Part shown: positions 7,501 to 56,557 of the stretch, in pieces
How positions within the stretch are numbered: the stretch's first letter is position 1
Layout: each line of letters opens with the position of its first letter
From: Sphingomonas sp. LaA6.9
Lineage (GTDB): Bacteria; Pseudomonadota; Alphaproteobacteria; Sphingomonadales; Sphingomonadaceae
Reading direction: 5' to 3'
Assembly: GCF_022601895.1 (NCBI RefSeq)
Contig: NZ_JAKVIO010000026.1
Span: 1-59,130 of the forward strand
DNA length: 59,130 nt
Notes under the pieces: model-generated
The model's input: the letters and a program-made list of their open reading frames with translations, nothing else
Databases searched by the model: none
What the model was told of the DNA's origin: nothing
Position numbers and translations under genes: made by a program

Positions 7501-10500
7501 GCGTGACGGTGTCGTTGCCGCCGCCCATGTCGACCGCGCCGCCGACGGTGCCCGAAACCTCGAGCGTCTCGACCGCGTCGGAGCCCTGAAGCACGGTCGC
7601 GCCCTGCGCGTCGAAGGTCGTGCCCGCCGCGATGCTGACGTTGGAGCCGGCGATGCCGAGCGTCGCCTGGTCGGTCGTGCCGCGGATCGAGACCGTGCCC
7701 TGCCCGCGCTGGCTCAGCGTTTCAAAGCCGCGGAACTGGTCGAAATTGACCGAGCCCGTGCCCGAAAGGTCGACGAGCAGCGTGTCGACGCCGTCATTGC
7801 CATAGGCCATGCCCGTGAAGGTCGAGGCCGCGGCATAGACGAAGGTGTCGTCGCCTTCGCCCATGCGCAGATCGCCGGTGAGCGTGCCGAAATTCTCGAA
7901 CACGTCGTCGCCCGTCCCCAGATCGACATTGCCGATGATCGTGCCGCCCGCAAGGTTGCGGATATGATCCGTGGTGTCGATCGTCTGGATCGCGCCCGCA
8001 ACCACGCGGTCCTCGCCGCCCAGGCCGTCGAGAATGGCCCCACCCGCGTCGGCGAAGACGCCGTCACCAATGACGGTATCGATGCCGCCGCGGATCGTGC
8101 CCGCATTGTCGAGCTGGAACAGGTTCTGGCCGATTTCATCGCCATAACCGGCCTCCATTTCGCCCGAGACGATGACCGCCGACGAGCCGGTGCCGGTCGC
8201 CTCGATCAGGCCGCCCGCATTGTTTGCGATGTGGAGGGCGCCGTAGTCGCCTTCGACATGCGCGCTCACCGCCGATGCGATCATATAGTCGGACGCGGTG
8301 CTCACGCCCCCGCCATTGGCGCGGATCGTGCCGCTATTGGTGACCTGCGTCGCGACGGCAGGCGTATATTCCTCGTCGCAATTCTCGGCATCGGGCGTAA
8401 CCAGCGTGCCGTTGCCCCTGGAGATAATCGCGAGTGCGGATCCGCTCGCACCAGATGCCTCGATCATTCCGCCATTGGTCAGATCAAGTCGATGGTCGAC
8501 AAGCAGGTAAGCGCCCGTGCCATTGGCGCCGGTGGCGCTGATCGAACCGGTGTTGGTAAGGCGCGCCAGCGCCTCATTGGCGCTGACCACCAGCGCGGTG
8601 CCGTCGGCGCCGCTCGAATTGATCTGGCCGCCATTGGTGAAGTTGAGGTTTTGGCCATTCTCACCCTCGCCATCTGCGCTGATGTAGACCGTTTCCCAGT
8701 TATCCGCGGTGGACGACATGGTGCCCGTATTGGCGAACGTAAAGCTGCCGCCGCCAGAGTGATAGACTTCCAGCGCCGCCTGGGTCGCGTTGATCGTGCC
8801 GGAGTTGGTGAAGCTCGCGAGACTGCCGTCCGCTGAAACACCGATTTTGTCGCTGGTGATCGTACCGCGATTGTCGAAGTTGAGGGCGTTTGCCCCGCCC
8901 TCTATCCACGCGATTTCAACCGCGGCATATTGGTCGATCGAGTTCGTGATATTGAAGTTTGCGGTGTTGATCACGGTGCCGTCGCCGAACGCGCGCAAGC
9001 CCTTGGTCTGTGTGGTCGCTGAGGTCAGCGTCACTTCGGTGCCGTCGCCCATCGCCTCGACACCGTGCAGTTCGAAATCGGCAGGCATGACGTTCGCCGC
9101 CAGATCGAAGCTGGCATCGGCTGTGAACGACCGGCCATAGGCGTCGACGCCGTCACCGCCCGTCAGCGTACCCGTGACATTCGCGGCCGCGCCATCGCGC
9201 ATCAGGAAATTGTCATTGCCTTCGCCAAGGTCGAGATTGCCGTTCAGCGTGCCGCCCGAGGCGATGTACGTGTCATCGCCTCGGTCCAGAATCACATGGC
9301 CATTGATGGTGCCCGCATTGTCGACGGTCTGCTGGTTGAGATCGCCGACGATCGCCGCACCGGCGACCCCGATCAGGCTACCGGTCAGTTGCCCGCCGAT
9401 CGTGCCGCCCGCCTCGTTCCTGACGGAGAACCGTCCGCCCGCGATGGCATTGCCATATTGGCTCAGGATATGGCCGTCATTGACGATGCGCGCGCCGCCC
9501 TCGGCCACGATGGCATGGCCGTACATGTTGACGGTGGCGTAATTGTTGCTGCCCTGGCGTTCGTTGGTGAAGCTGCCGCCCGCCATCCGGATGCCCGTCG
9601 AGATGTCGTCGACGGTCGGAAACTGGTTGTAATCCTCGTAAATGTCCCCGCGATTGACGATATTGCTGCCGGTGCCCTCGATGAGCGTCGCGTTATGCTG
9701 CGCGGTCACCGAGACCACACGAATGCTCGCCCCATCCTGAATAACGACTTCAGTGCCGATGCCCGCGCGCAGGGCGGTGCCGCCAACCACGCTGATATCC
9801 GCCGGGATCGACCCGCCATTGGCCAGCTCGACGCGGTCCGCATAAAAGGCGTCCACGGTGTAATCGGCGACGCCACCGAAGATCGACTGATTCAGAACGA
9901 GATTCACGCGATCCTGGCTGCCGTCGAACCATTGGCCCGTGCCGCCCTCGTGCACCACGATCGCCGAAAGATCGGTGCCCGCCGTGTTGATGTCGGTATC
10001 GACGAAGATCGTCCCATCGCCGCCCACGTTGAGCGTGTGGTTGGTCAGCGCGTTCTCTTCGCCCTGTGCGTCGAGCGAGCCCCGCAGCGTCAGCACCGTA
10101 TTGGCGCCAGCGGCTTCATAGACGACCCCGCCTTCATAGCCAGCAATCGGTTCGACCACGATATTAGCGGTCTGCGTCGTGCCCGCGCGCGCCCAGAGCG
10201 TGTCGTCCCCCGCCCCCGGATCGAGCGTGCCCGTGACGACGCCGCTGGTGTCGACATTGCCCAGGCGATCCAGACGTGAGACGTCGAGTACGACGATGTC
10301 GTCGCCATCGCCCATGCGCACATCGCCCTGGACGGTGCTGCCTTCGGCCAGCCAGACGATGTCGTCTTCGGCACCCGCAGAAAGATCGATGTTGCCGACG
10401 ATGCTTCCCTTGTTGGCGATATTGGCCGCGTCATAGAACGGACTGGCTGCCCGGACGATCGCGCCGCCACCGCCGGTAATGCTCGCGCCCGCATCGTTGA

Positions 10501-44699: not shown

Positions 44700-44823
44700 T
44701 CCGGAACGCTTGCGGAATATCAATGCGGCCGCCGCAGCGATGCTATCGAAGGTTGCGGCCTGCGCGTGAGCCCATGCGGCCCCGATAGGCGAGCAGTTTC
44801 TCGAACCGCGCGAGGATGATGCC

Positions 44824-45105
44824 ATGGCCACGGTGTTCGGACTTTCAGATCCCACCTTCGTCATCGCGAAGGATGGCAAATTTTATCTGACGCTGAGCGT
44901 GCTCGAATATGATCCGGCGGCGATCGGCGCCAGCGCTTCGCTCAAGGCGGGTGTCGCCGCAATCGCAGCGGCTTTCAACGCCGGGCAGAAATTCGAGGCG
45001 GCCGTCGTCGCGTTCAGCATGGTCACCAGTGCCGCGCAGACGCGGCCACGCCATGTCAATGTGATCTCCATGGCGCAGACGAATCCCATCGCGCCCGACG
45101 AGTGA
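44824..45105 (+). CDS. 93-residue unrecognised protein upstream of YcaO (candidate modification substrate)
   Basis: GAGGATGAT precedes the ATG. The stop overlaps the possible GTG start of YcaO, so they are translationally linked. The protein has no signal peptide, no Cys and one Pro in the first 30 residues. Residues 1-30 look like a beta-rich leader (FVIAKDGKFYLTLSVLEYD). Residues ~35-70 form a hydrophobic Ala/Val/Gly-rich amphipathic stretch with SLKAG, FNAGQKFEAAV and FSMVTSAAQ. The tail RHVNVISMAQTNPIAPDE is polar, with Ser, Thr and Asn. I recognise no family. Its size and coupling fit a precursor peptide or an accessory binding protein for the YcaO/TfuA pair. The lack of Cys argues against thiazole formation and is neutral for thioamidation. 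Confidence 0.7.
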   Translation: MATVFGLSDPTFVIAKDGKFYLTLSVLEYDPAAIGASASLKAGVAAIAAAFNAGQKFEAAVVAFSMVTSAAQTRPRHVNVISMAQTNPIAPDE

Positions 45106-45107
45106 CC

Positions 45108-46268
45108 ATGTTCGGCGCAACCGCGGCGGGACCGACGCGGCGCCTGGCAACCGCATCGATCCTTGAACGCGCCCATCGCACGGCTGCACGCTGCGGCGTC
45201 AGCCGGCTTGCCGACATCACGCGGCTCGACCGGATCGGGCTGCCCGTCTGGCAGGCAGTGCGACCGGCCGGACGCGCGCTCAGCATCCACCAGGGAAAGG
45301 GGATCAGCGCTCTCGCCGCGAAAATCGGTGCGCTCTGCGAGGCGATCGAAAGCCATTATGCCGAACAGGCTCCCGCAGATGGCCCTTACGGCACCCTCGC
45401 GGAGCTTCCCCCCGGCACCGAAGCGCCCGCGCTGGCCGACCTCGCGCTCGATCGCGCGCATCCTCCACCGGCGGATATGGCGATGCAATGGTGCCAGGCA
45501 CACAATATCGTCAGCGGCGCGCCCGCCTGCCTGCCGCACGCATTCGTCTCGCTGGATTTCACCCGCGACTGGCACTCGCGTTTCGACCGATCGAGCGGCG
45601 GTCTTGGCGCGGGCACGACCAAGGCGCGCGCGAGCGAGAAGGCGATCCTCGAACTGATCGAGAACGATGCGGTGGGCCGCTGGGAGCGCGAGGACCCGCT
45701 TTCGCGCATGGCAACTTTGCTCGATCCCGACACCGTGACGCTGCGCTGGTTCCAGGACTGGCGCGCGCATCTCGACAGTCTTGGAATGCAATTGCACCTC
45801 TGCGCGCCCGGCTCGGTGACGGGCCATCCTGTATTCCACTGCACGCTGCTATGTCATGACCGCGCTGAGGGGATCGCCATATTTGCGGGATCCGCCTGCC
45901 ATGGCTCGGCCGAGACCGCGCTCTTCGGCGCACTGGCCGAGGCGATCCAGTCGCGGCTTACCTTTATCGCGGGCGCGCGCGACGACATGCTGCCCTCGCT
46001 TTATGCGTCGCGCGCCAAAGCGCCGCCGGCGATCGGGCCGGTCCCCCCACCCGCGCCCGGATTTCCGCTGGTCGCATGGCAGTCGATCGGCGAAAGACGC
46101 TCCGCGCTGCCCGATCTGGTCGCCGATCTCGGTCGCGCGGGGCTGGACCGCATCTGGTGCAAGACGCTTTCGCCGCCCGAAGCCGAAATCCGCGTCGTAA
46201 AGGCGTTCATCGGCGGGCTGGGATCATTGAGACGAACCGAACAGCCGAGCGCACGCGCATGCGCGTGA
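45108..46268 (+). CDS. YcaO-domain ATP-dependent cyclodehydratase/thioamide-type enzyme
   Basis: The protein has 386 residues from the ATG at 45108; a GTG at 45102 overlapping the preceding stop is an alternative. The YcaO ATP-binding Glu clusters are present: KIGALCEAIESHYAE (Glu78, Glu81) and the core SGGLGAGTTKARASEKAILELIENDAVGRW (Glu177, Glu182, Glu185). VSRLADITRLDRIGLPVWQAVRP opens the domain. The C-terminus (RACA) lacks the PxPxP motif of azoline-forming YcaO enzymes. YcaO proteins activate peptide-backbone amides with ATP. With a TfuA partner they are known to install thioamides (methyl-coenzyme M reductase) or to make trifolitoxin-like peptides. It overlaps tfuA by ten bases. Confidence 0.92.
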   Translation: MFGATAAGPTRRLATASILERAHRTAARCGVSRLADITRLDRIGLPVWQAVRPAGRALSIHQGKGISALAAKIGALCEAIESHYAEQAPADGPYGTLAELPPGTEAPALADLALDRAHPPPADMAMQWCQAHNIVSGAPACLPHAFVSLDFTRDWHSRFDRSSGGLGAGTTKARASEKAILELIENDAVGRWEREDPLSRMATLLDPDTVTLRWFQDWRAHLDSLGMQLHLCAPGSVTGHPVFHCTLLCHDRAEGIAIFAGSACHGSAETALFGALAEAIQSRLTFIAGARDDMLPSLYASRAKAPPAIGPVPPPAPGFPLVAWQSIGERRSALPDLVADLGRAGLDRIWCKTLSPPEAEIRVVKAFIGGLGSLRRTEQPSARACA

Positions 46269-47014
46269 TCGGCTTTGTCGGCCCCTCGCTCGGGGCGGCG
46301 GAGCGCGCGGCCTTTCCGCATATCTGCTGGCGGCCGCCTGCCGAGGCCGGCGACCTGTTGCGGCTCGTGGCCGATCCCCCCGACGTCATCTGCCTGATCG
46401 ACGGCTATTTCGACCAGCGTCCGGCGGTGCGGCACAAGGAGATATTGCTGCTGCTGTCGCTGGGCGTCCGCATCCATGGCGCGAGCAGCATCGGCGCGCT
46501 GCGCGCCGCCGAGATGGATCGCTATGGCATGATCGGCATAGGCGCGATCTACGCTGCATACCGCGACGGCATTATCGATGGCGATGACGAGGTGGCGTTG
46601 CTCCATGCGCCCGCCGAACTCGACTGGCTGCCCATTTCGCTGCCGCTGGTCGATGTGCGCGCGACGCTCGCTGCGGCCCGGCAAGGCGGGATCGTCACCG
46701 ATGAAGATCAGACGCGGCTGATCGACGCTGCGACGTCAATTTTCTATCAGGATCGCGACTGGGACGGGATAGTGGCAGCGTCAGACTGCGCGCAAGCCAG
46801 CGCTGCAGCCCTGCGGAGCTGGCTGAAGGCCAACCATGTCATGCAAAAAGCGCTGGACGCGCGCGCCTGCGCGGCCGCCGCCCTCGCAAAATCACCACAT
46901 GCCGCCATACGCCCCGAAGCGGTCATGCCGGGCTTTGTAACGGCTTTGGCGCGTGATTGCGGGGGGACGGCGATGGATGTGCTTCAAGTGCTGCGCGAAG
47001 CAGCGCCAGAATAG
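46259..47014 (+). CDS. TfuA-like protein, YcaO partner
   Basis: The protein has 251 residues. TfuA hallmarks occur in order: VIGFVGPSL at the start, DVICLIDGYFDQRPAVRHKEILLLLSLGVRIHGASSIGALRAAEM and YGMIGIGAIYAAYRDGIIDGDDEVALLHAP. The His-Lys-Glu and Gly-Ala-Ser-Ser-x-Gly-Ala-Leu-Arg-Ala segments are the family core. A helical C-terminal half follows. In known pairs TfuA is thought to deliver sulfide or assist YcaO. The gene starts inside the YcaO end (10-bp overlap), and its last 92 bases are also the end of the opposing regulator gene. Confidence 0.9.
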   Translation: MRVIGFVGPSLGAAERAAFPHICWRPPAEAGDLLRLVADPPDVICLIDGYFDQRPAVRHKEILLLLSLGVRIHGASSIGALRAAEMDRYGMIGIGAIYAAYRDGIIDGDDEVALLHAPAELDWLPISLPLVDVRATLAAARQGGIVTDEDQTRLIDAATSIFYQDRDWDGIVAASDCAQASAAALRSWLKANHVMQKALDARACAAAALAKSPHAAIRPEAVMPGFVTALARDCGGTAMDVLQVLREAAPE

Positions 47015-48560
47015 TGTCGCGCTGCCCGATGTCCTGGATCGGGTGCTGGAACATGAGCCAGTCCATCAGCCGCGCATTGTCGAGCGGCTCGGCGGCCACC
47101 CAGCGGGCGGAGACGTGCCGGCGCCACTGCGCCGCCCGGTCGCCGGCATCGTCGACGCCGAGCGCCTGCGCCGCGATCAGCGCATAGAATTCGCTCGAGA
47201 TGGTCCGACGCGTCACCTGCGCAAGGCTCCGCGCCGCCGCCGCATAGTCGCGCATGAGGAGGTGGAGCAGCCCCTCTTCCTCATGCGGCGCCTCGGTCGC
47301 GAATGGCGTCAACTTCTTGCATCGCTCCAGGAGCGCGACGGCGGCGTCGATATCGGCGAGAAACATCAGCGCGGTCGCGACCTGAACGAGCCGGTTGGCA
47401 TTATAGGGGTTCAGCCGCAGCGCCTCATCGAGATGCGCGCGCGCGGGCACGAGTTCGCCCGCCCACAAATGGCACCAGCCATTGACCGTATGGATGTGCG
47501 AATCCCCGGGATCGAGCGCAAGCGCGCGCGCAGCGAGTTCGTGCGCGCGCGCGCGTTCGGCGCGGCCCGTGGCGCCGAGTCCGGTATAGTCGAAATCGGT
47601 GTTGTAGAGGCGGATCAGCGGCGGATAGGCAAGGCCGAAATCGGGATATCGCGCGATCATCGCCTCCCACGCATCCGCCATCGCGCGCGCGTCCGAAAAG
47701 CCTTCGATGCGCCGCATGAGCAAGCGGTTCTGGAAGTAGACATCATATGCATCGGTCGCGTGGCGCGGGAGATTGCGGAGCACATCGTCGCGCATGCTGG
47801 GCAAGGCGGCCGCGGCGATGCGGTGGAGCAGATCCTCGACATTGAACGAAGACCCGTCGAGCGCGATCCGCGCGGCGTCCGCCCAGACCACGGCCTGGTT
47901 CGCCAGCCGGCAGAGCCGCGCGTAAACCTTGACCGCACCGGGCTCGTCGACGAGCGTGAGCACGAGCTGGTAATCACGATCGCCCGTCCCCGCCATCGCC
48001 CCCCCGCCATCGGCGTTCTGCGCCGAAACCAGTCGCACGTCGCGGAAACGCGACAGGCTGAACAGGATCTCTTCGCGCAGAATCGAGGCCAGATGGGGAT
48101 GGCTGTCGGCGATGCCGGCATCGTCGAAAGGGGGCACATAGAGCAGTGGCGGCTCGCCCGCGCCGCCCGGCTCGGGCGACCGCTGGTGACCGGGTTCGGC
48201 GGTCGCCACGGGTACGCTGCACCGCGACGGCAGCTCTGAAAGGATCCGCACGGGCGCGAGGAATCGATAGCCGCGTCCATAGACGGTCTCGATGAAGCGC
48301 GGCGCGCCACGCGCCTCCCCCAGCGCATGGCGCAGTTCCTTGATGACCGACGTCAGCGCCGATTCCGAGACGATCGTGCCGTCCCAGACCGTTTCGAACA
48401 GCACTTCCTTGGTAAGCAGCCGCCCGCGCTGCTCGATCAGCATGACGAGCACGCGAAAGGCCTTGTTGCCGATATGCACCGTACCGTGCGGGCCCCACAC
48501 CCGTTCGTCGGTGCGATCGACAATGAACTCGCCGAACTCGAACGCCGATTCGCGATCCAT
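46923..48560 (-). CDS. Winged-helix (OmpR/CadC-type) regulator with TPR-like C-terminal region
   Basis: The protein has 545 residues. Residues ~8-105 form a Trans_reg_C winged helix (FEFGEFIVDRTDERVWG, LLTKEVLFETVW, SALTSVIKELRHALG, FIETVYGRGYRF). There is no transmembrane segment after it, unlike CadC. The middle (LLYVPPFDDAG, LASILREEILFSLSRFRDVRLV) is the domain often seen before TPRs in HilA/adenylate-cyclase-like regulators. TPR-type helices span ~300-470 (ALDPGDSHIHTVNGWCHLWAG, LNPYNANRLVQVATALMF). It is transcribed toward TfuA and away from UrcA. Whether it controls the YcaO genes is unknown; the C-terminal ~15 residues are Pro/His-rich and lie opposite tfuA. Confidence 0.88.
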   Translation of the reverse strand: MDRESAFEFGEFIVDRTDERVWGPHGTVHIGNKAFRVLVMLIEQRGRLLTKEVLFETVWDGTIVSESALTSVIKELRHALGEARGAPRFIETVYGRGYRFLAPVRILSELPSRCSVPVATAEPGHQRSPEPGGAGEPPLLYVPPFDDAGIADSHPHLASILREEILFSLSRFRDVRLVSAQNADGGGAMAGTGDRDYQLVLTLVDEPGAVKVYARLCRLANQAVVWADAARIALDGSSFNVEDLLHRIAAAALPSMRDDVLRNLPRHATDAYDVYFQNRLLMRRIEGFSDARAMADAWEAMIARYPDFGLAYPPLIRLYNTDFDYTGLGATGRAERARAHELAARALALDPGDSHIHTVNGWCHLWAGELVPARAHLDEALRLNPYNANRLVQVATALMFLADIDAAVALLERCKKLTPFATEAPHEEEGLLHLLMRDYAAAARSLAQVTRRTISSEFYALIAAQALGVDDAGDRAAQWRRHVSARWVAAEPLDNARLMDWLMFQHPIQDIGQRDTILALLRAALEAHPSPSPRNHAPKPLQSPA

Positions 48561-48812: not shown

Positions 48813-49148
48813 ATGACCAGGAACAGCCCATTCAAGACCACCGTGCTTTCAGTCACCGTCGGAATGCTCGCCGTATTGGCGGCGCCCTCGGCCTCGGCAC
48901 AGGAGATCAAGTTCGCCTATCGCCAGTATGAGTTGCAGACCCCTGACGGCACACGCAACGTCTACAAGCGCATGATCAAGCAGGTCCGCAACACCTGCAG
49001 CCAGTTCGGCGCAACCGCACTTGACCGCAGCATGACGCGCGGCGCGTGCGTCAAGGATCTCTCGGACCAGCTGGTCAGCAAGATCGGCGACGCGCAGCTC
49101 GCAGCGCTGCACGAGAACCGCAGCGATACCCGTATTGCCAGCCGTTAG
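48813..49148 (+). CDS. UrcA-family exported protein
   Basis: The protein has 111 residues. Signal peptide (VLSVTVGMLAVLAAPSASAQ), then a compact domain: FAYRQYELQTPDGTRNVYKRMIKQVRNTCSQFG, a typical UrcA pattern with a β-strand, 'L.T..G...VY.R' and a Cys near residue 63, followed by a second Cys (GACVKDLSDQLV). UrcA proteins are small, periplasmic and of unknown function, widespread in Caulobacterales and sphingomonads. GGAGACC lies close to the ATG. It is followed by a classical terminator, so it is probably a single-gene unit. Confidence 0.85.
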   Translation: MTRNSPFKTTVLSVTVGMLAVLAAPSASAQEIKFAYRQYELQTPDGTRNVYKRMIKQVRNTCSQFGATALDRSMTRGACVKDLSDQLVSKIGDAQLAALHENRSDTRIASR

Positions 49149-49360: not shown

Positions 49361-49452
49361 GACAAGTCGCGTTTAATTCGAAGAAGAATGAGCCGCCGAT
49401 CTCGATTCTACCATTGATGGGTCGCGGCGCTGACGACGGATCGGGAGGGATC

Positions 49453-51441
49453 ATGCAACTGCGTTCGTTGAAAATGTTGATTGCCGGCGTGCTGGCGCTC
49501 GCGGCGGTGCCCGCATCTACCCAACAGGCGCCAAGCATTGCGCCCAAGCCGATCACGCCACCGGCTGCACAAGCGACGCCGCTCCCCGCACCGGCGTCGG
49601 GCGCGGCAACCTTGACCAAGGCCGATGTCGATAGCTGGCTTGACGGATATATGCCCTATGCGCTCGCGCGCGGCGAGGTCGCCGGCGCGGTCGTCGTCGT
49701 GGTCAAGGACGGTCAGGTCCTCACGCAGCGCGGTTTCGGCTATGCCGATGTCGCCGCACGCAAGCGCGTCGATCCCGAGGCGACGATGTTCCGCCCCGGG
49801 TCCGTCTCCAAGCTCGTCACCTGGACCGCGGTGATGCAGCTGGTCGAGCAGGGCAGGATCGACCTCGACGCAGACATCAACACCTATCTCGATTTCAAGA
49901 TTCCGGCGCGTGACGGAAAGCCCGTGACGATGCGCCAGGTGATGACGCACACCGCAGGCTTTGAGGAAACCATCCGCGGCCTGATCAGCGTCGGCAAGCC
50001 CGATGCGCCGCTGGGACAGCTGCTCAAGCGCTGGGTGCCCGAGCGCATCTTCGCGCCGGGCACGACCCCCGCCTATTCCAACTATGCCACCGCGCTCGCC
50101 GGCCATGTCGTCGAACGCGTGTCGGGCCTGTCGTTCGACGATTATGTCGATCGCAACATCTTTGCGCGTATCGGGATGACGCGCTCGAGCTTCCGCCAGC
50201 CGCTTCCCGCGCCACTTCAGCCGCTGATGTCCAGGGGCTATGCGCTCGCGAGCGGCGATCCCAAGCCCTATGAAGTGATCGGTCTCGCGCCCGCGGGCAG
50301 CCTCGCCGCGACGGGCGCGGACATGGGCAGGTTCATGCTCGCGCATCTGAACAATGGCGGGGCGCTTCTGAAGCCCGAAACCGCGCGGATGATGCACACG
50401 ACGACGTTGACCATCCTGCCCGAAGTCAATCGCATGGCGCTCGGCTTCTACGAACAGGAGATCAACGGGCTGACCGCGATCGCGCATGGCGGCGACACCC
50501 AGTGGTTCCATAGCTATCTGTGGCTGTTCCCCGAGCGCAACACGGGTGTGTATGTGTCGATGAACAGCGCGGGCAAGGACGGCGCATCGGGCGCCATCCG
50601 CACCGCATTGTTCGAAGGATTTGCCGATCGCTATTTCCCCGCGCCCTATCAGGACGCGCGGGTCGATGCAGACACGGCGAAGCAGCACGCGCAGATGCTG
50701 GCGGGAACCTATGTCAACAGCCGGCGGTCGGACTCGAACTTCTTCAAGGCGCTCGAGCTCGTCGGGCAGGTCAAGGTCGGCGTCGGCGCCGACGGCACGC
50801 CGCTCGTCAACTTCCTCACCAATCTGGGCGGCGAGCCGATCAAATGGGTCGAGATCGCGCCCTTTGTCTGGCGCGATGCCAATGGGCATGGCCGGATGGC
50901 GGCCAAGGTCGTCGACGGCAAGGTCGTGCGGCTGAGTTTCGACGAGATCTCGCCCTTCATGATGCTCGATCGCGCGCCCTGGTATCTCTCGGCCAGCTGG
51001 CTGATGCCGGCACTGCTCTTCGGCATCGGCGTGCTCGCGCTCACCGCGCTGTCCTGGCCCATCGGGGCGATCGCGCGGCGGCGCTATGGTGCGAAGCTCG
51101 CCTTCGCGGGCAACGACCTCAAGGCATATCGCCTGGTGCGCGGTTTTGCTGCGCTGGTGAGCGTGGTGCTGATCGGCTGGGCGGTGGCGCTCTCCATGAT
51201 GATGTCCGACTTTGCGCTGCTCGGCGGTGCGCTCGACTGGCTCATCTGGCTGCTTCAGATTGCCGGCGTGATCGCCTTCTTCGGGATGCTCGGCATCGCC
51301 GTGTGGCACCTGTGGCTGGCGTGGAAGGGCAAGCGTGGCTGGTTCTCCAGATTGTGGAGCGTGCTGATCGTGCTTGCGGCCTTCTTCATCCTGTGGGCAG
51401 CACTCGGCTTCAAGCTCATCGGCTTCGGCACCGACTACTGA
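49453..51441 (+). CDS. Class C beta-lactamase-family serine hydrolase with C-terminal membrane domain
   Basis: The protein has 662 residues. GGGAGGG lies before the ATG at 49453. A signal peptide is followed by a Pro-rich linker and a DD-peptidase/esterase domain (~55-420) with Ser117-Val-Ser-Lys120, Tyr208-Ser-Asn210 and His345-Gly-Gly347. After ~150 residues of beta-rich sequence, four membrane segments (about 515-545, 570-590, 600-630 and 640-660) anchor the C-terminus. This layout resembles D-aminopeptidase/Pbp-type hydrolases attached to the inner membrane and facing the periplasm. Its own promoter precedes it, with the dipeptidase operon 121 bases downstream. The substrate is probably a peptide or peptidoglycan fragment. 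Confidence 0.9.
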   Translation: MQLRSLKMLIAGVLALAAVPASTQQAPSIAPKPITPPAAQATPLPAPASGAATLTKADVDSWLDGYMPYALARGEVAGAVVVVVKDGQVLTQRGFGYADVAARKRVDPEATMFRPGSVSKLVTWTAVMQLVEQGRIDLDADINTYLDFKIPARDGKPVTMRQVMTHTAGFEETIRGLISVGKPDAPLGQLLKRWVPERIFAPGTTPAYSNYATALAGHVVERVSGLSFDDYVDRNIFARIGMTRSSFRQPLPAPLQPLMSRGYALASGDPKPYEVIGLAPAGSLAATGADMGRFMLAHLNNGGALLKPETARMMHTTTLTILPEVNRMALGFYEQEINGLTAIAHGGDTQWFHSYLWLFPERNTGVYVSMNSAGKDGASGAIRTALFEGFADRYFPAPYQDARVDADTAKQHAQMLAGTYVNSRRSDSNFFKALELVGQVKVGVGADGTPLVNFLTNLGGEPIKWVEIAPFVWRDANGHGRMAAKVVDGKVVRLSFDEISPFMMLDRAPWYLSASWLMPALLFGIGVLALTALSWPIGAIARRRYGAKLAFAGNDLKAYRLVRGFAALVSVVLIGWAVALSMMMSDFALLGGALDWLIWLLQIAGVIAFFGMLGIAVWHLWLAWKGKRGWFSRLWSVLIVLAAFFILWAALGFKLIGFGTDY

Positions 51442-51494
51442 ACGCTGGCGCTGGCCGTCGGACGCGGCACGCCGTGCCCGATGGCCAGCGTGGA

Positions 51495-51530
51495 TTGACA
51501 AATCTCCAAACGGGACAATTATGTCCCAAA
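51495..51530 (+). promoter_or_regulatory. Promoter B with embedded palindrome
   Basis: TTGACA (51495-51500), 17-base spacer, ATTATG (51518-51523), with CCAAA in the spacer and CCCAAA after, as in promoter A. Around the -10, GGGACAATTATGTCCC (51512-51527) is a perfect 6-bp dyad around ATTA, extended by CCA/TGG further out. A bound repressor here would block RNA polymerase. It is 39 bases before the M19 dipeptidase start. Confidence 0.65.
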
Positions 51531-51562
51531 TGGATAATTAGCAATGCGGAGAGAAGTGGGCC

Positions 51563-52711
51563 ATGAGTAAAATGCCAGGAGCGTCGCGTCGTGCGATTCT
51601 GAAGGGTGCGCTGACCGCCGCCGCGATCGGCGGATTTCCGATGATCAACACGGGCGCCTATCAACTGTTCGCCCAGTCGTCGCGACGCTATTCGAAGCGC
51701 GCGGTCGATCTCGTGCGTCAGTCGCTCGTCATCGACATGCTGGCGCCGCTCAAGATCGACTTTCGTCCCGAATATTATGCCAGCCCCTTAAGCGAGAAGG
51801 ACGCGGCCGATTTCAGGGCCAGCGGCATCACCGGCTTTCACAATGCGGTCGGCACCGGCGGCCCCGAAGCCCGCGCGGAGACGCTGGCATGGATCGCGGC
51901 GTGGCAGGGTTTTGCGGGGCGCAACGCGCATGTCTTCTCGCTCGTCGGCCGCGCCGAGGATCTCGACCGCGCCAAGCGCGAGGGCAAATGCGCCGTCATC
52001 ATGGGCGTCCAGAACTCGGAGCATTTCCGGACGGTCGAAGACGTCAAGATGTTCTACCAGATCGGCCAGCGCTGTTCGCAGCTCACCTATAACAGCCAGA
52101 ACATGATCGGATCGGGCAGCACCGACCGCATCGACGGCGGTGTCAGCGACTATGGCGCCGCGATCATCAAGGCGATGAACGAGGTCGGCATGCTGATCGA
52201 CGTATCGCATTGCGGCGACCGGACCACGCTCGACGCGATCGAGATGTCGCCCAAGCCGATCGCGATCACGCACAGCAACTGCCGCGCGCTCGTCGATCAT
52301 CCGCGCGTCAAGACCGACGAGGCGATCAAGGCACTGGGCGCAAAGGGCGGCGTGATGGGAATCACGGGCGTGCGCATGTTCGTCAGCGCCAAAGAGCCGA
52401 CGGCGCTTGCCAACATCGTCGACCATATCGATCATGTCGTGAAGCTGGCAGGCATCGATCATGTCGGCATCGGATCCGACGCCGATCTCAACGGCTATGA
52501 CGACATGCCCGCCGACCAATATGCCCAGCTCAAGGCGGGCTACAAGGCGAGCTATGCCTTTCGCGACAAGATCGACACCGACGGCTTCGATCACCCGAAG
52601 AAGGTCTACGACCTCACCGAGGAGCTGATCCGCCGCAGCTATTCGAACGAGAACATCGCAGCCATCCTCGGGGGGAATTTCAGGCGGCTGCTGGGGGCGA
52701 CCTGGATCTGA
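51563..52711 (+). CDS. Tat-exported M19-family (membrane/renal) dipeptidase, variant
   Basis: The protein has 382 residues. SRRAILKGALTAAAIGG is a twin-arginine signal, so the protein folds, probably with metal, before export. The M19 barrel shows LIDVSHCGDRTT and ITHSNCRALVDHPR (the two His ligands of the second metal), and HVGIGSDADLNGYDD near the substrate site. The usual first-metal HxD (DGHND) reads VIDMLAPL, and the bridging Glu segment reads GVQNSEH. Such a subgroup exists in proteobacteria, so the variation is probably old rather than a defect. Family members cut dipeptides, including D-residues. It is the first gene of a three-gene operon. Confidence 0.88.
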   Translation: MSKMPGASRRAILKGALTAAAIGGFPMINTGAYQLFAQSSRRYSKRAVDLVRQSLVIDMLAPLKIDFRPEYYASPLSEKDAADFRASGITGFHNAVGTGGPEARAETLAWIAAWQGFAGRNAHVFSLVGRAEDLDRAKREGKCAVIMGVQNSEHFRTVEDVKMFYQIGQRCSQLTYNSQNMIGSGSTDRIDGGVSDYGAAIIKAMNEVGMLIDVSHCGDRTTLDAIEMSPKPIAITHSNCRALVDHPRVKTDEAIKALGAKGGVMGITGVRMFVSAKEPTALANIVDHIDHVVKLAGIDHVGIGSDADLNGYDDMPADQYAQLKAGYKASYAFRDKIDTDGFDHPKKVYDLTEELIRRSYSNENIAAILGGNFRRLLGATWI

Positions 52712-52748
52712 ATCCAGGTTGAAAAAACGAAGAAGGGGAAACGGGAAA

Positions 52749-54953
52749 ATGACATCATCTTCTCGCGGCACGATGCTTGCCGCCACGACCGCGCTGTGGC
52801 TGGTGCTGCCCGCAACGGCGGCGCATGCGCTTGACGACACTGCGCCCGCAGCGCCCGACGACAATATCATCGTCGTGACTGCGCAGAAGCGCACCGAAAA
52901 TCTCCAGGACGTGCCGATTTCGATCAGCGTCGTCGGCGGCGAGGAACTGAAGCAATCGGGTTCGGCGCAGCTCACCGATTTCGGCCCCTATATAGCCGGC
53001 CTCCAGGTCGACAGCTCGGGCACGCCCGGCCAGTCGACGGTGTCGCTGCGCGGCATCGCGCCGGTGGGGCCGAGCACGACGGTCGCCAACTATCTGGACG
53101 ATGCCCCCGTCGGCTCGAGCGCGCTCTACGCACGCAGCGCCGAGTTCACGCTGGACCTGCTCCCCTATGATATCGAGCGCGTCGAAGTGCTGCGCGGCCC
53201 GCAGGGCACGCTCTATGGCGCGAGCTCGATCGGCGGCCTGCTCAAATATGTGACGGTTTCGCCGAGCCTCTCCGAATTCTCGGGCAAGGCGGGCGCCGAA
53301 CTCTTCGGGATCCGGCACGGCTCCGACGTGGGCTATGCGGGTCAGGCGATGGTCAATGTCCCGCTGGTCGCCGACAAGCTGGGCATCACCGCCAGCTATG
53401 CCTATCGCCACACCCCCGGCTATATCGACAATGTGCAGACGGGCGCACGCGATCAGAACGAATATGATCAGCAGGGCGGGCGCGTCAGCCTGCTATGGCA
53501 GGCGAGCGAGAATTTCACGGTCCGCCTTTCGGGCCTCTGGCAGAAGATCGATACCGAGAACAATTCCACAATCGTCCAGGACCTCGCCACCGGCGAGCGC
53601 ATCGGCGATGGCATGTCGAACAACAATTATCTCGACGAGCCCTTCCGCAAGACGCTGGAATATTATGCGGCGACGCTCGACTACGACCTGGGTTTCGCCG
53701 AGCTGACATCGGCCACGACTTACAGCCGCGCCAAGACGCGGCAGGTGCAGGATGCGAGCCGCCTGTTCGGCGTGCTCTTCCCGCTCTTCGGCGCGCCCGA
53801 CGCGGGGCTGGCCCCGTTCACGCTGAAGCTCGATCTTGAGAAGTTCACGCAGGAAATCCGGCTGACATCGCCGACGAGCGACCGTTTCGAATGGCTGATC
53901 GGCGGCTTCTACACCGATGAGGACAGCGGCAACGAACAGGTCGTCCGTTCACTGACCTTTGACGGGACGCCGATCGCCGGGCTCGATCCGCTCGCGGTCG
54001 CCGAACTGCCCAGCACCTACCAGGAATTTGCGGTGTTCGGAAACGCGACCTACAAGTTCAGCGAGCAGTTCGACATCACCGGCGGATTGCGCTGGGCGCG
54101 CAACGAGCAGAAATTCCGCCAGATCAGCTCGGGCGCGGTTCTGCCCACCGCAAACGATCCGGGCACCTCGTCCGAAGAGGTCGTGACCTACAGCGTCAGC
54201 CCGCGCTTCCATGTCAATGAAGACACGATGATCTATGCGCGCGTCGCGAGCGGCTATCGTCCCGGCGGCCCTAATACCACGCTGCCCGGCGTAGTGCCGA
54301 CGGTGGATTCGGACTCGCTCGTCAACTACGAACTCGGCATCAAATCGCTGCTGTTCGACCGGACACTGTCGATCGATGTCGCAGCCTTCTACATGGACTG
54401 GAAGGACATCCAGCTGACCGTCGACTTCAACGGCGTCAGCGGGCTTGCCAACGCGGGCACGGCGCGCAGCCAGGGCATCGAGGCGTCGATCATGTGGCAG
54501 CCCGTCAGCGGGCTCTCACTCGGCGCCAACGGTGCCTATACCGACGCGCAGCTCACCTCCGACACGCCGCCCAGCGTGGGCGGGCTCGACGGTGACCGGC
54601 TGCCGCGCATTCCGCGCTTCGCCGGGTCGCTCACCGCCGACTATGTCTTCGACGTCAGCGACAATACGACGCTGCGCCTCGGCGGCGGTCTGCGCCACAC
54701 CGGCAGCCGCATTTCGACGGTGGAAAGCAATCCGGACTCGGTCACGGCCAAGGCCTATACCGCGCTCGATCTCAATGCCGCGCTCACCATCGACGAACGC
54801 TGGACGATGCGCACCTATGTCCGCAACGTCACCGACACCGACGGTGCGATCACGCGCAACATTTTCAACGACGGTCTGGGTCGGCCGGTGCAATACACCG
54901 TCGTACCCGTCCAGCCACGCACGATCGGCGTCGCGGTCGAACTTGCATTCTGA
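52749..54953 (+). CDS. TonB-dependent receptor of the peptide locus
   Basis: The protein has 734 residues; GAAGGGGAAACGGGAAA precedes the ATG. Signal peptide (ALWLVLPATAAHA), TonB box IIVVTAQKRTEN, plug with LQDVPISISVVGGEELKQ, VSLRGIAPVG, EVLRGPQGTLYGASSIGGLLKYV, then a barrel ending in Phe (VAVELAF). It lies 37 bases after the dipeptidase and 17 before a second serine hydrolase. This order (hydrolase, receptor, hydrolase) suggests uptake of an oligopeptide or amide-containing compound that is then cut in the periplasm. Confidence 0.92.
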   Translation: MTSSSRGTMLAATTALWLVLPATAAHALDDTAPAAPDDNIIVVTAQKRTENLQDVPISISVVGGEELKQSGSAQLTDFGPYIAGLQVDSSGTPGQSTVSLRGIAPVGPSTTVANYLDDAPVGSSALYARSAEFTLDLLPYDIERVEVLRGPQGTLYGASSIGGLLKYVTVSPSLSEFSGKAGAELFGIRHGSDVGYAGQAMVNVPLVADKLGITASYAYRHTPGYIDNVQTGARDQNEYDQQGGRVSLLWQASENFTVRLSGLWQKIDTENNSTIVQDLATGERIGDGMSNNNYLDEPFRKTLEYYAATLDYDLGFAELTSATTYSRAKTRQVQDASRLFGVLFPLFGAPDAGLAPFTLKLDLEKFTQEIRLTSPTSDRFEWLIGGFYTDEDSGNEQVVRSLTFDGTPIAGLDPLAVAELPSTYQEFAVFGNATYKFSEQFDITGGLRWARNEQKFRQISSGAVLPTANDPGTSSEEVVTYSVSPRFHVNEDTMIYARVASGYRPGGPNTTLPGVVPTVDSDSLVNYELGIKSLLFDRTLSIDVAAFYMDWKDIQLTVDFNGVSGLANAGTARSQGIEASIMWQPVSGLSLGANGAYTDAQLTSDTPPSVGGLDGDRLPRIPRFAGSLTADYVFDVSDNTTLRLGGGLRHTGSRISTVESNPDSVTAKAYTALDLNAALTIDERWTMRTYVRNVTDTDGAITRNIFNDGLGRPVQYTVVPVQPRTIGVAVELAF

Positions 54954-54970
54954 AGTACAAAGGGGATTTG

Positions 54971-56557
54971 ATGAAACATAAGCTAATCGTCCGCGTCGCC
55001 ACGGCCGCGCTGATGTTCGGCGTGGCGCCGGCGTTGGCTGCGCCACCGACCGGTTTCGACGCACGCGTCGAGGCGCTGCGCAAGCAGGTCGGCGTTCCCG
55101 GCATGGCGATCTCGATCGTCGAGCAGGGGCAGCCGACGCTGGTCAAGGGCTATGGCGTGCGCAAGCTGGGCGACGCCGCAGCGGTCGACGCCGACACCAT
55201 CTTTCCGACGGGGTCGACGGGCAAGGCGGTGACCGCCGCCGCGCTTGCGCTGCTCGTCGATCAGGGCCGGATCACATGGGACGATCCCGTCATCAAGCAT
55301 ATTCCCTGGTTCCAGATGTACGATCCCTGGGTGACGCGCGAAATCACCGTGCGCGACCTGCTGGTGCATCGCAGCGGCCTGGGGCTGGGCGCGGGCGACC
55401 TGCTGTTCGTTCCGCGTGCCAGCCTCTCCCGCCGCGAGACCGTTAAGCGCCTGCGCCATATCAAGCCCGCGACGAGCTTTCGCAGCGGCTATGCCTATGA
55501 CAACATCCTCTACATGGTCGCGGGCCAGCTCATCGAGGAGGTGACGGGGCAGACCTGGGAGGCCTTCACCAACGAGCATGTCCTAAAGCGCGCGGGGATG
55601 CAGGAATCGACCGCCGATGGCGAGGCGCGCTTCGCCACCGCCAATCGCGCCTTCCCGCATGCCCGGATGAACAGCGGCCTGCGCGGCGCAGGCGATCAGG
55701 AAGTGCTCAACGAGCGCGACGAACTGGGCCGCAACGCCGCACCCGCGGGCGGAATTGCGATGAGCGCCAGCGACATGGCGCTCTGGCTCCAGATCCAGCT
55801 TGGCAAGGGGAAGCTGCCCGGGGGCGATGCGCGGCTCTACAGCGAAGCCGTCGCGCGCGACATGTGGACGCCCGCGACGCTGATGCCGGTCTCGAAGATG
55901 CCGCCCGCGTTCAAGGACGCGGAGCCGATGTTCAAGACCTATGCGCTGGGCTGGGACGTCAGCGACTATCAGGGCGTCCGGATCATCTCGCATGGCGGCG
56001 CGGTGTTCGGCGTCCAGACGGTCGTGGTTCTGATCCCCGACCGCGACGTCGGCTTCGCGATCCAGATCAATTGCGAAGACGGCGAGATCGTGCGCGGGCT
56101 GATGTACGAGCTGATCGACCATTATCTCGGGCGGCCGGCGGCTGGCTGGCCCGAAAAATGGGTGGCCTTCAAGAAGGACCGTATCGCGGCCGGGCTCAAG
56201 GCGTTCAGCGCCAAGAGCGCCGAACCCGCCAGGGTCGGCCCGTCGCTTTCGCTCGCGCGCTATGCCGGCGATTATGACGACCCGTGGTACGGCCGGATCG
56301 AGGTGCGCCCCGCGGGCAAGGGGCTGACGATCGACTTCAAGTCGACGCCGCGCATGGCGGGCAAGCTCGAGCACTGGCAGTACGACACCTTCATCACGCG
56401 CTTCGACGACAAGACGATCGAGCCCGCCTATGTCACCTTCGGCCTCGACGCCGACGGCAAGGTGGAGCGCGTGACGATGAAGGCGGCCTCACCGCTGGCC
56501 GATTTCAGCTACGACTATCACGACCTGCACTTCGCGCCCGCAGCGGCCGCGAAATAG
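54971..56557 (+). CDS. Class C beta-lactamase-family serine hydrolase with C-terminal DUF3471-like domain
   Basis: The protein has 528 residues. The ATG at 54971 directly follows an in-frame TTG; AGGGGATT is upstream. Signal peptide (ATAALMFGVAPALA), then Ser82-Thr-Gly-Lys85 as the nucleophile motif, Tyr176-Asp-Asn178, and HGG (ISHGGAVFGVQ). The last ~110 residues (LARYAGDYDDPWYGRIEV to the end) form the beta-rich domain common after such hydrolases. No membrane anchor is present, so it is periplasmic. It differs from the hydrolase at 49453 in its Tyr motif, domain architecture and lack of membrane segments, so the two are not recent copies. Confidence 0.9.
   Translation: MKHKLIVRVATAALMFGVAPALAAPPTGFDARVEALRKQVGVPGMAISIVEQGQPTLVKGYGVRKLGDAAAVDADTIFPTGSTGKAVTAAALALLVDQGRITWDDPVIKHIPWFQMYDPWVTREITVRDLLVHRSGLGLGAGDLLFVPRASLSRRETVKRLRHIKPATSFRSGYAYDNILYMVAGQLIEEVTGQTWEAFTNEHVLKRAGMQESTADGEARFATANRAFPHARMNSGLRGAGDQEVLNERDELGRNAAPAGGIAMSASDMALWLQIQLGKGKLPGGDARLYSEAVARDMWTPATLMPVSKMPPAFKDAEPMFKTYALGWDVSDYQGVRIISHGGAVFGVQTVVVLIPDRDVGFAIQINCEDGEIVRGLMYELIDHYLGRPAAGWPEKWVAFKKDRIAAGLKAFSAKSAEPARVGPSLSLARYAGDYDDPWYGRIEVRPAGKGLTIDFKSTPRMAGKLEHWQYDTFITRFDDKTIEPAYVTFGLDADGKVERVTMKAASPLADFSYDYHDLHFAPAAAAK

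What the first reader, a model, noticed from the sequence alone, without database searches (positions are those of the whole stretch)
44824..47014. Minimal YcaO-TfuA locus with a coupled 93-residue protein
A 93-aa protein, a YcaO enzyme and a TfuA protein are joined by a near-overlap and a 10-bp overlap. YcaO and TfuA show the full family signatures. No dehydrogenase, leader peptidase, transporter or immunity gene is nearby. This points either to a new RiPP whose export is handled elsewhere, or to backbone thioamidation of a cellular protein, as YcaO-TfuA does to methyl-coenzyme M reductase in archaea. The small protein has no family I recognise. The YcaO lacks the PxPxP tail of azoline formers, which favours thioamide chemistry.
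Basis: partly seen in the sequence, partly recalled or inferred. Interest (0 to 1): 0.82.

Follow-up and report, generated by a model that had tools for sequence, protein, structure and literature searches.

The report
Thioamide peptide cassette with TPR regulator

Summary
In detail: a 93-aa gene, ycaO and tfuA are adjacent and coupled. The small gene is real: it has a ribosome-binding site, and a homologue beside ycaO in 23 other loci. On a 113-tip YcaO tree it marks one clade (22 tips inside; none of 91 outside, 4 of these not judgeable). It is best read as a RiPP precursor. Across the family an N-terminal motif (F-V-I..Y-x-T..Y-D) and a C-terminal [N/Q]-T motif are conserved; the middle varies. 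The window protein has two copies, AQTRP and AQTNP. Relative G941 has FAQTDPP plus a separate ORF with six FANTEPP-type repeats, as in multi-core precursors. In thiovarsolin, precursor+YcaO+TfuA suffice, so a missing protease or exporter is no objection. Thioamidation is inferred, not shown. New: a convergent winged-helix-TPR regulator overlaps tfuA by 92 bp and is found in 21 of the 23 other loci; TPR proteins with nucleotidyl-cyclase domains lie near some other YcaO-TfuA pairs. Three of four congeners lack the cassette. Ribosomal or Mcr-type protein thioamidation is disfavoured. Verdict: new precursor family, new variant of TfuA-type RiPP loci. A thioamide-peptide signalling role is the bold, untested reading.

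The parts
44812..44816 (+). ribosome-binding site (GAGGA) of the small gene
   Evidence: sequence read; the 24 small ORFs listed have purine-rich stretches at this place (judged by eye)
44824..45105 (+). 93-aa precursor candidate
   Evidence: ORF; homologue beside ycaO in 23 other loci; no Pfam match at E<=1
44824..44916 (+). N-terminal leader-like part, residues 1-31 (FVIAKDGKFYLTLSVLEYD)
   Evidence: motif found in 21 of 23 family members by a pattern written after seeing them; near-invariant F12, Y21, T23, Y29. Against: between window and congener it is 22 of 31 identical with dN/dS about 0.84
44917..45021 (+). variable spacer, residues 32-66
   Evidence: 15 of 34 aligned residues identical to the congener, dN/dS about 0.85
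45022..45102 (+). C-terminal core-like part, residues 67-93
   Evidence: 23 of 27 identical to the congener, dN/dS about 0.18
45034..45048 (+). core copy 1, AQTRP (residues 71-75)
45073..45087 (+). core copy 2, AQTNP (residues 84-88)
   Evidence: and the translation
45108..46268 (+). YcaO enzyme, 386 aa (alternative GTG start 45102)
   Evidence: Pfam 147.1 bits; E78, E81, E182, E185, Q281 and R283 invariant among 15 homologues; nearest solved structure MJ1094, 6pe3, E 1.8e-9
46259..47014 (+). TfuA, 251 aa
   Evidence: Pfam 148.1 bits; nearest solved structure 6xp8, E 5.1e-36; S10, S77, K60, K197 invariant among 9 rows
46923..48560 (-). winged-helix (Trans_reg_C) TPR regulator, 545 aa, convergent and overlapping tfuA by 92 bp
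   Evidence: Pfam Trans_reg_C 63 bits, TPR_2 30 bits; found in 21 of 23 other loci of the family

Best explanation
A minimal RiPP cassette of the YcaO-TfuA (thioamide) type with its own regulator. The 93-aa protein is the precursor. Its N-terminal part binds the enzymes, and YcaO with TfuA swaps backbone oxygen for sulfur in or next to the two C-terminal A-Q-T-x-P cores, using ATP and sulfur from a ThiS-type carrier encoded elsewhere in the genome. Cellular peptidases then release short thioamide peptides. The convergent winged-helix-TPR protein controls the operon or reads its product. Shown here: the gene order, family membership of YcaO and TfuA, exclusive co-inheritance of precursor and YcaO, the core-like repeats, co-occurrence of the regulator, and ThiS-family genes in the genome. 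Inferred: thioamidation, the modified residue, cleavage, and the regulator's role.
For: Coupled genes. YcaO 147.1 and TfuA 148.1 bits. An HMM of the small protein found 17 of 397 family genomes including the window's own, and 17 of 17 have ycaO directly downstream. The YcaO tree puts the 22 tips with the small gene on one side of one branch (SH-aLRT 98; 0 of 500 shuffles as low). 18 of 23 members have [NQ]T in their last 17 residues against a shuffle mean of 2.2 and maximum of 9 in 2000 (pattern chosen after seeing the sequences, and six of the 23 are near-copies from one genus). Two AQTxP copies occur in the window and congener proteins, and a tandem FANTEPP-type ORF plus FAQTDPP precursor in G941. 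C-terminus most constrained. Two ThiS-family places in the genome. Precedent: varA, varY and varT suffice for thiovarsolin B, precursor repeats range from none to five in one family, and endogenous peptidases are thought to release the product (PMC6511847).
Against: No product or mass shift is known. The leader-like part shows no homology to four other upstream small-ORF sets (hhalign probability at most 1%) and is not the most constrained part against the congener. In G941 the tandem-repeat ORF lacks the leader-like part, so that part may be dispensable or act in trans. 5 of 23 members lack [NQ]T in their last 17 residues. TfuA and YcaO stay below the NCBIfam cut-offs of the McrA thioamidation equivalogs (194.2 < 235.2 and 95.6 < 365), so the chemistry is not assigned by a curated model. 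No structure could be predicted.
Confidence: 0.72

Rival explanations
1. The small protein is not the peptide source but a stable partner: either a protein that keeps its thioamide (as McrA and uL16 do) or a recognition/carrier protein that serves YcaO-TfuA in trans.
For: Length is fairly constant (81-118 aa). In G941 a core-repeat ORF without the leader-like part stands beside two leader-bearing proteins, one of which (78 aa) lacks an obvious core, which fits a trans role.
Against: The middle of the protein varies freely while the C-terminal 27 residues are constrained, and window and congener proteins hold two core copies of their own. No similarity to an RRE or any other Pfam domain beyond single weak DUF hits among 22 members.
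Confidence: 0.15
2. YcaO-TfuA thioamidates a housekeeping protein (uL16-like or Mcr-like), and the small gene is an accessory.
For: YcaO enzymes are known to act on intact proteins: uL16 and McrA (PMC13063428, abstract and two sections read).
Against: Sporadic presence; pI 7.2 instead of the acidic 4.4 of E. coli YcaO; no room for the extra C-terminal TPR domain (YcaO domain ends at residue 371 of 386); TfuA is not found near suspected uL16-modifying YcaOs; strict link of small gene and YcaO.
Confidence: 0.06
3. The enzymes make another backbone change (azoline, amidine) rather than a thioamide.
For: YcaO enzymes are versatile (PMC13063428 introduction), and Ser, Thr and Cys chemistry cannot be excluded from sequence: the core Thr is the most conserved C-terminal residue.
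Against: TfuA, which hydrolyses ThiS-COSH for thioamide formation (PMC13185837 and PMC8939145 passages), is fused in order to ycaO; no PxPxP tail (significance of that tail recalled); no E1-like or dehydrogenase family hit among the eleven window proteins scanned between 41670 and 52711 except an SDR that belongs to the flank.
Confidence: 0.07

Closest known systems
Thiovarsolin locus (varA-varY-varT, Streptomyces; PMC6511847)
   Same: Precursor, YcaO and TfuA adjacent; the three genes suffice for thiovarsolin B; core repeats vary from none to five within the family; no dedicated protease.
   Different: Precursor not homologous as far as seen: the only Streptomyces locus fetched (L098) has SSAGAANAVK-type repeats upstream, and its YcaO lies outside the clade. 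Thiovarsolin has extra genes varO, varL, varP and varS; here there is a TPR regulator instead. Core is AQTxP, not APR.
TfuA-related RiPP gene clusters mined by antiSMASH/RiPPER (PMC8120280)
   Same: Pair rule ycaO+tfuA; most clusters in Proteobacteria; 797 precursor families. This locus would be caught by the same rule and may lie in its supplement, which I could not search.
   Different: Main text has no occurrence of 'tpr', 'tetratricopeptide', 'cyclase' or 'sphingo'.
McrA-glycine thioamidation YcaO-TfuA (methanogens)
   Same: Nearest solved TfuA (6xp8) and YcaO (MJ1094, 6pe3) are archaeal thioamidation-type proteins.
   Different: Below the equivalog cut-offs; dedicated small precursor gene here.
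RRNPP quorum-sensing pairs (Firmicutes; PMC10075063, abstract start seen in a listing)
   Same: Propeptide gene next to a TPR receptor with a DNA-binding domain.
   Different: DNA-binding domain is of the OmpR/PhoB type; the propeptide is next to modifying enzymes; Gram-negative; no evidence of peptide binding.

Membership tests
TfuA-type (thioamidated) RiPP locus | adjacent ycaO and tfuA | tested here: met
TfuA-type (thioamidated) RiPP locus | short precursor gene conserved beside them | tested here: met
   17 of 17 family genomes with the small gene have ycaO downstream; 22-tip clade
TfuA-type (thioamidated) RiPP locus | leader-core organisation, with core repeats in some members | tested here: inconclusive
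   two core copies in window and congener, six tandem repeats in G941; the G941 repeat ORF lacks the leader-like part; leader not the most constrained part
TfuA-type (thioamidated) RiPP locus | ThiS-type sulfur carrier in the genome | tested here: met
   two PF02597 places over the cut-off; family also present in 11 of 14 control genomes, so weak evidence
TfuA-type (thioamidated) RiPP locus | thioamide in the product | not testable with these tools
   needs mass spectrometry
uL16-modifying YcaO | acidic YcaO (E. coli pI 4.4) | tested here: not met
   pI 7.2
uL16-modifying YcaO | no TfuA nearby and extra TPR domain in YcaO | tested here: not met
   TfuA overlaps ycaO; YcaO domain ends at residue 371 of 386; features from PMC13063428 passages
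McrA thioamidation equivalogs (TIGR03266, NF033432) | score over curated cut-off | tested here: not met
   95.6 < 365 and 194.2 < 235.2 bits
RRNPP receptor-propeptide pair | TPR receptor with DNA-binding domain beside a propeptide gene | tested here: met
   resemblance only
RRNPP receptor-propeptide pair | receptor binds the mature peptide | not testable with these tools

The most novel reading that the evidence does not exclude
The cassette is a peptide-signalling system of Gram-negative bacteria in which the signal is a protease-resistant thioamide peptide. Precursor, YcaO and TfuA make it, and the TPR part of the linked regulator reads it. The same TPR part is attached to winged-helix or BTAD output domains in this clade and to nucleotidyl cyclases beside some other YcaO-TfuA pairs, giving transcriptional or cyclic-nucleotide outputs.
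Probability: 0.22. Interest if true: 0.88.

Novelty: new variant of a known kind. Interest (0 to 1): 0.6.

Why it matters
Characterised YcaO-TfuA peptides come from Actinobacteria (so stated in PMC8120280), while most such loci are in Proteobacteria with no known product. This clade gives a compact, testable case: three genes, a predicted core motif, and a relative (G941) whose precursor has six tandem cores that should give a strong mass signal. If the linked TPR regulator reads the peptide, it would suggest what many of these orphan loci are for: signalling rather than antibiosis.

Tried and rejected
Small protein as a known family: no Pfam or PHROG assignment; weak hits only. Plasmid tblastn with three family members: one 29%-coverage hit at E 6, otherwise none. 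Defence genes: no PADLOC match for the four proteins. Common ancestry of the leader-like part with four other upstream small-ORF sets: no support. Solved structures for the small protein: none below E 0.27. DNA repeats within the small gene: only short GC-rich matches. Direct reading of the TfuA biochemistry paper: not held. The leader as the most constrained part: contradicted.

Limits of the counts: 12 loci were dropped by name before the tree: L043 (family member with a broken ycaO), L202 (family member, near-copy), L054 (same genome as L036), L055, L060, L061, L090, L118 (short ORFs), and L074, L116, L158, L159 (duplicate or extended ORFs). Eight loci had no ycaO hit. Four of the 91 outside tips have under 150 bp of DNA before ycaO, so absence of the small gene cannot be judged there. 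The control used 13 of the 20 non-family class genomes with TfuA.

Full report
1. Observation. The 93-aa ORF (44824-45105), ycaO (45108-46268; in-frame GTG at 45102) and tfuA (46259-47014) lie on the + strand with a 2-bp gap and a 10-bp overlap. Pfam gives YcaO 147.1 bits and TfuA 148.1 bits, and nothing for the small protein at E<=1. The catalytic-pattern residues E78, E81, E182, E185, Q281 and R283 of YcaO are invariant among 15 homologues (their role in ATP binding is recalled). The genome has one YcaO.

2. The small gene is real and belongs to this YcaO. In the order draw, 14 of 396 genomes have TfuA. Of these, 12 have the small gene before ycaO: the window's own, nine with clear homologues, G155 with a broken ycaO and a weak homologue, and G262 where the pair lies on another contig. 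G362 sits in a radical-SAM-type cluster and G233 beside a ThiS/ThiF-like gene set (my reading of the translations). Searching the other way, an HMM of the small protein found 17 of 397 family genomes, own included, and 17 of 17 have ycaO directly downstream; tfuA follows in 16 and is cut by the contig end in G262. Named public contigs added Sphingosinicella sp. CPCC 101087 and a Caulobacteraceae MAG (weak: E 0.22 before it was added to the model). In a class-wide draw of 385 genomes only the window's own genome matched, although 21 have TfuA. On a YcaO tree of 113 tips the 22 tips with the small gene are one side of one branch (SH-aLRT 98, quick tree); shuffled labels need 20.4 changes on average. 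None of the 91 other tips has it, 4 of which cannot be judged. All 24 small ORFs listed have a purine-rich ribosome-binding site by eye.

3. Anatomy of the small protein. Near-invariant columns are F12, Y21, T23 and Y29 in the N-terminal part and T86 near the C-terminus in the 13-row alignment. The N-terminal pattern fits 21 of 23 members; [NQ]T lies within the last 17 residues in 18 of 23, against a shuffle mean of 2.2 and maximum of 9. Both patterns were written after seeing the sequences, and six members are near-copies, so these numbers are descriptive. Against the congener, residues 67-93 are 23 of 27 identical (dN/dS about 0.18), the middle 15 of 34 (0.85) and the N-terminal part 22 of 31 (0.84) (20-27 synonymous sites each). 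The last figure speaks against a simple 'conserved leader'. Within the last part stand A71-Q-T-R-P75 and A84-Q-T-N-P88, 13 residues apart. A scan of the window and the other family loci for two such motifs within 40 residues returned the window and congener proteins, the G941 repeat ORF, and one unrelated-looking ORF in L036.

4. The telling relative. G941 (L204) has three small ORFs with ribosome-binding sites before ycaO: a 78-aa one with the N-terminal motif, a 118-aa one ending FAQTDPPPNTL, and a third whose C-terminal two-thirds are six 10-aa repeats, five FANTEPP and one FANTESP. Tandem Repeats Finder reports a 30-bp period at 8758-8918. This is how multi-core RiPP precursors look, and it points to the A-[N/Q]-T-x-P stretch as the substrate core. 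The third ORF lacks the N-terminal motif, so a trans role of the leader-bearing proteins is possible.

5. Chemistry. TfuA hydrolyses ThiS-COSH and hands sulfide to YcaO, and is taken as the hallmark of thioamide formation (PMC13185837 passages; PMC8939145 passages). The nearest solved relatives are MJ1094 (6pe3) and a TfuA (6xp8). The genome has two ThiS-family places. In Streptomyces, varA, varY and varT suffice for thiovarsolin B, precursors of that family have none to five repeats, and endogenous peptidases are thought to free the product (PMC6511847, passages and one section). A dedicated protease or exporter is therefore not required. That a thioamide forms here remains inference.

6. Not a ribosome modifier on present evidence. 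For uL16, YcaO is acidic, carries an extra TPR domain, and has no TfuA nearby (PMC13063428; abstract, two sections and passages). Here pI is 7.2, the YcaO domain runs to residue 371 of 386, TfuA is coupled, and 3 of 5 genus genomes have no TfuA.

7. The missed fourth gene. The regulator at 46923-48560 (-) has a Trans_reg_C winged helix and TPRs and overlaps tfuA tail to tail by 92 bp. It is found in 21 of 23 other loci of the family; the exceptions are L043 (broken locus) and L196 (contig end; the other contig of the same genome, L040, has it beside tfuA). From the coordinates, 19 of the 21 are convergent with overlapping ORFs, L049 is convergent without overlap, and L203 is upstream on the same strand. 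By contrast, the window's ung, SDR, DsbA and enoyl-CoA hydratase flanks recur in only one of the 23, the congener. So the four genes travel as a unit. Of the other four genus genomes, G396, G398 and G399 have no DNA match to the cassette, no TfuA and only weak regulator hits. In G399 the ung gene is followed by other genes; in G398 the contig ends about 0.7 kb beyond ung, so the site itself is not seen there.

8. TPR proteins beyond the clade. A profile of the regulators hits 36 of 109 loci outside the 23 at E<=1e-10; two of these (L040, L054) are really family genomes. 13 hits lie within 600 bp of ycaO/tfuA by the script, of which L040, L054 and L082 (unreliable gap) must be set aside, leaving 10; 20 lie more than 1.5 kb away. 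Pfam on eight such proteins shows Trans_reg_C or BTAD in family members and Guanylate_cyc plus TPR in L045 and L057. As a control for chance, a profile of 16 regulators was run over 33 genomes. The best hit of the whole genome is beside YcaO-TfuA in 17 of 17 family genomes (10 of them had given a seed) and in 4 of 13 other class genomes with TfuA (G450, G566, G712, G750; none a seed, though four seeds came from other non-family loci). In the other nine it is elsewhere or absent. So the link is strict in this clade and partial outside it.

9. Prior work on this link. Searches for TfuA with tetratricopeptide (3 papers), YcaO with adenylate cyclase and tetratricopeptide (0), and TfuA/YcaO/adenylate cyclase (30 listed) showed no title or abstract start that reports it. 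A graspetide survey notes complex loci with YcaO, TfuA and adenylate cyclases, and TPR proteins of unclear role in other RiPP loci (PMC8939145, passages). The main text of the TfuA mining paper has no occurrence of tpr, tetratricopeptide, cyclase or sphingo. Supplements were not searchable, and many papers are not held.

10. Verdict. A new precursor family in a new variant of the TfuA-type RiPP locus, with a strictly linked TPR regulator. The signalling idea explains the minimal gene set, the lack of immunity and export genes, and the swapping of output domains, but no step of it is shown.

Noticed in passing
window 49435-56557: Downstream flank: beta-lactamase-family hydrolase and M19 dipeptidase (Pfam), then what look like a TonB-dependent receptor and a second serine hydrolase (translations only). 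In the congener the matching hydrolase DNA lies on other contigs, so it is not part of the cassette.
   Followed up: partly
window 48813-49148: UrcA-family small protein (NCBIfam) beside the regulator; also beside it in the congener and, weakly, in L036.
   Followed up: no
L071, L126, L079, L107, L157, L166, L168, L098: Other YcaO-TfuA loci have upstream small ORFs with tandem repeats, e.g. AFETKEPAFSGH (Ensifer), GAKIDPAQ (Ruegeria), AGRYYVTPG (Rhizobium), GGKQRFAA, SSAGAANAVK (Streptomyces): candidate multi-core precursors. L157's repeat may be a wrong-frame reading.
   Followed up: partly
L172, L175, L169: A 136-aa protein (KLYIIGDRESGVLFVKTEPLKLTHIS...) sits directly before ycaO with a TPR protein about 0.5 kb upstream, in three genomes of one family.
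   Followed up: no
L033:9300-11100: In G233 the genes before ycaO look like a JAMM protease, ThiS, rhodanese and ThiF-type set, i.e. a dedicated sulfur supply next to YcaO-TfuA (translations only).
   Followed up: no
L043:5500-7400: G155 appears to hold a decaying copy of the locus: ycaO split over two frames, tfuA interrupted, no regulator found.
   Followed up: no
L204:8680-8934: Six-repeat core ORF without the N-terminal motif overlaps the start of the called ycaO ORF.
   Followed up: partly
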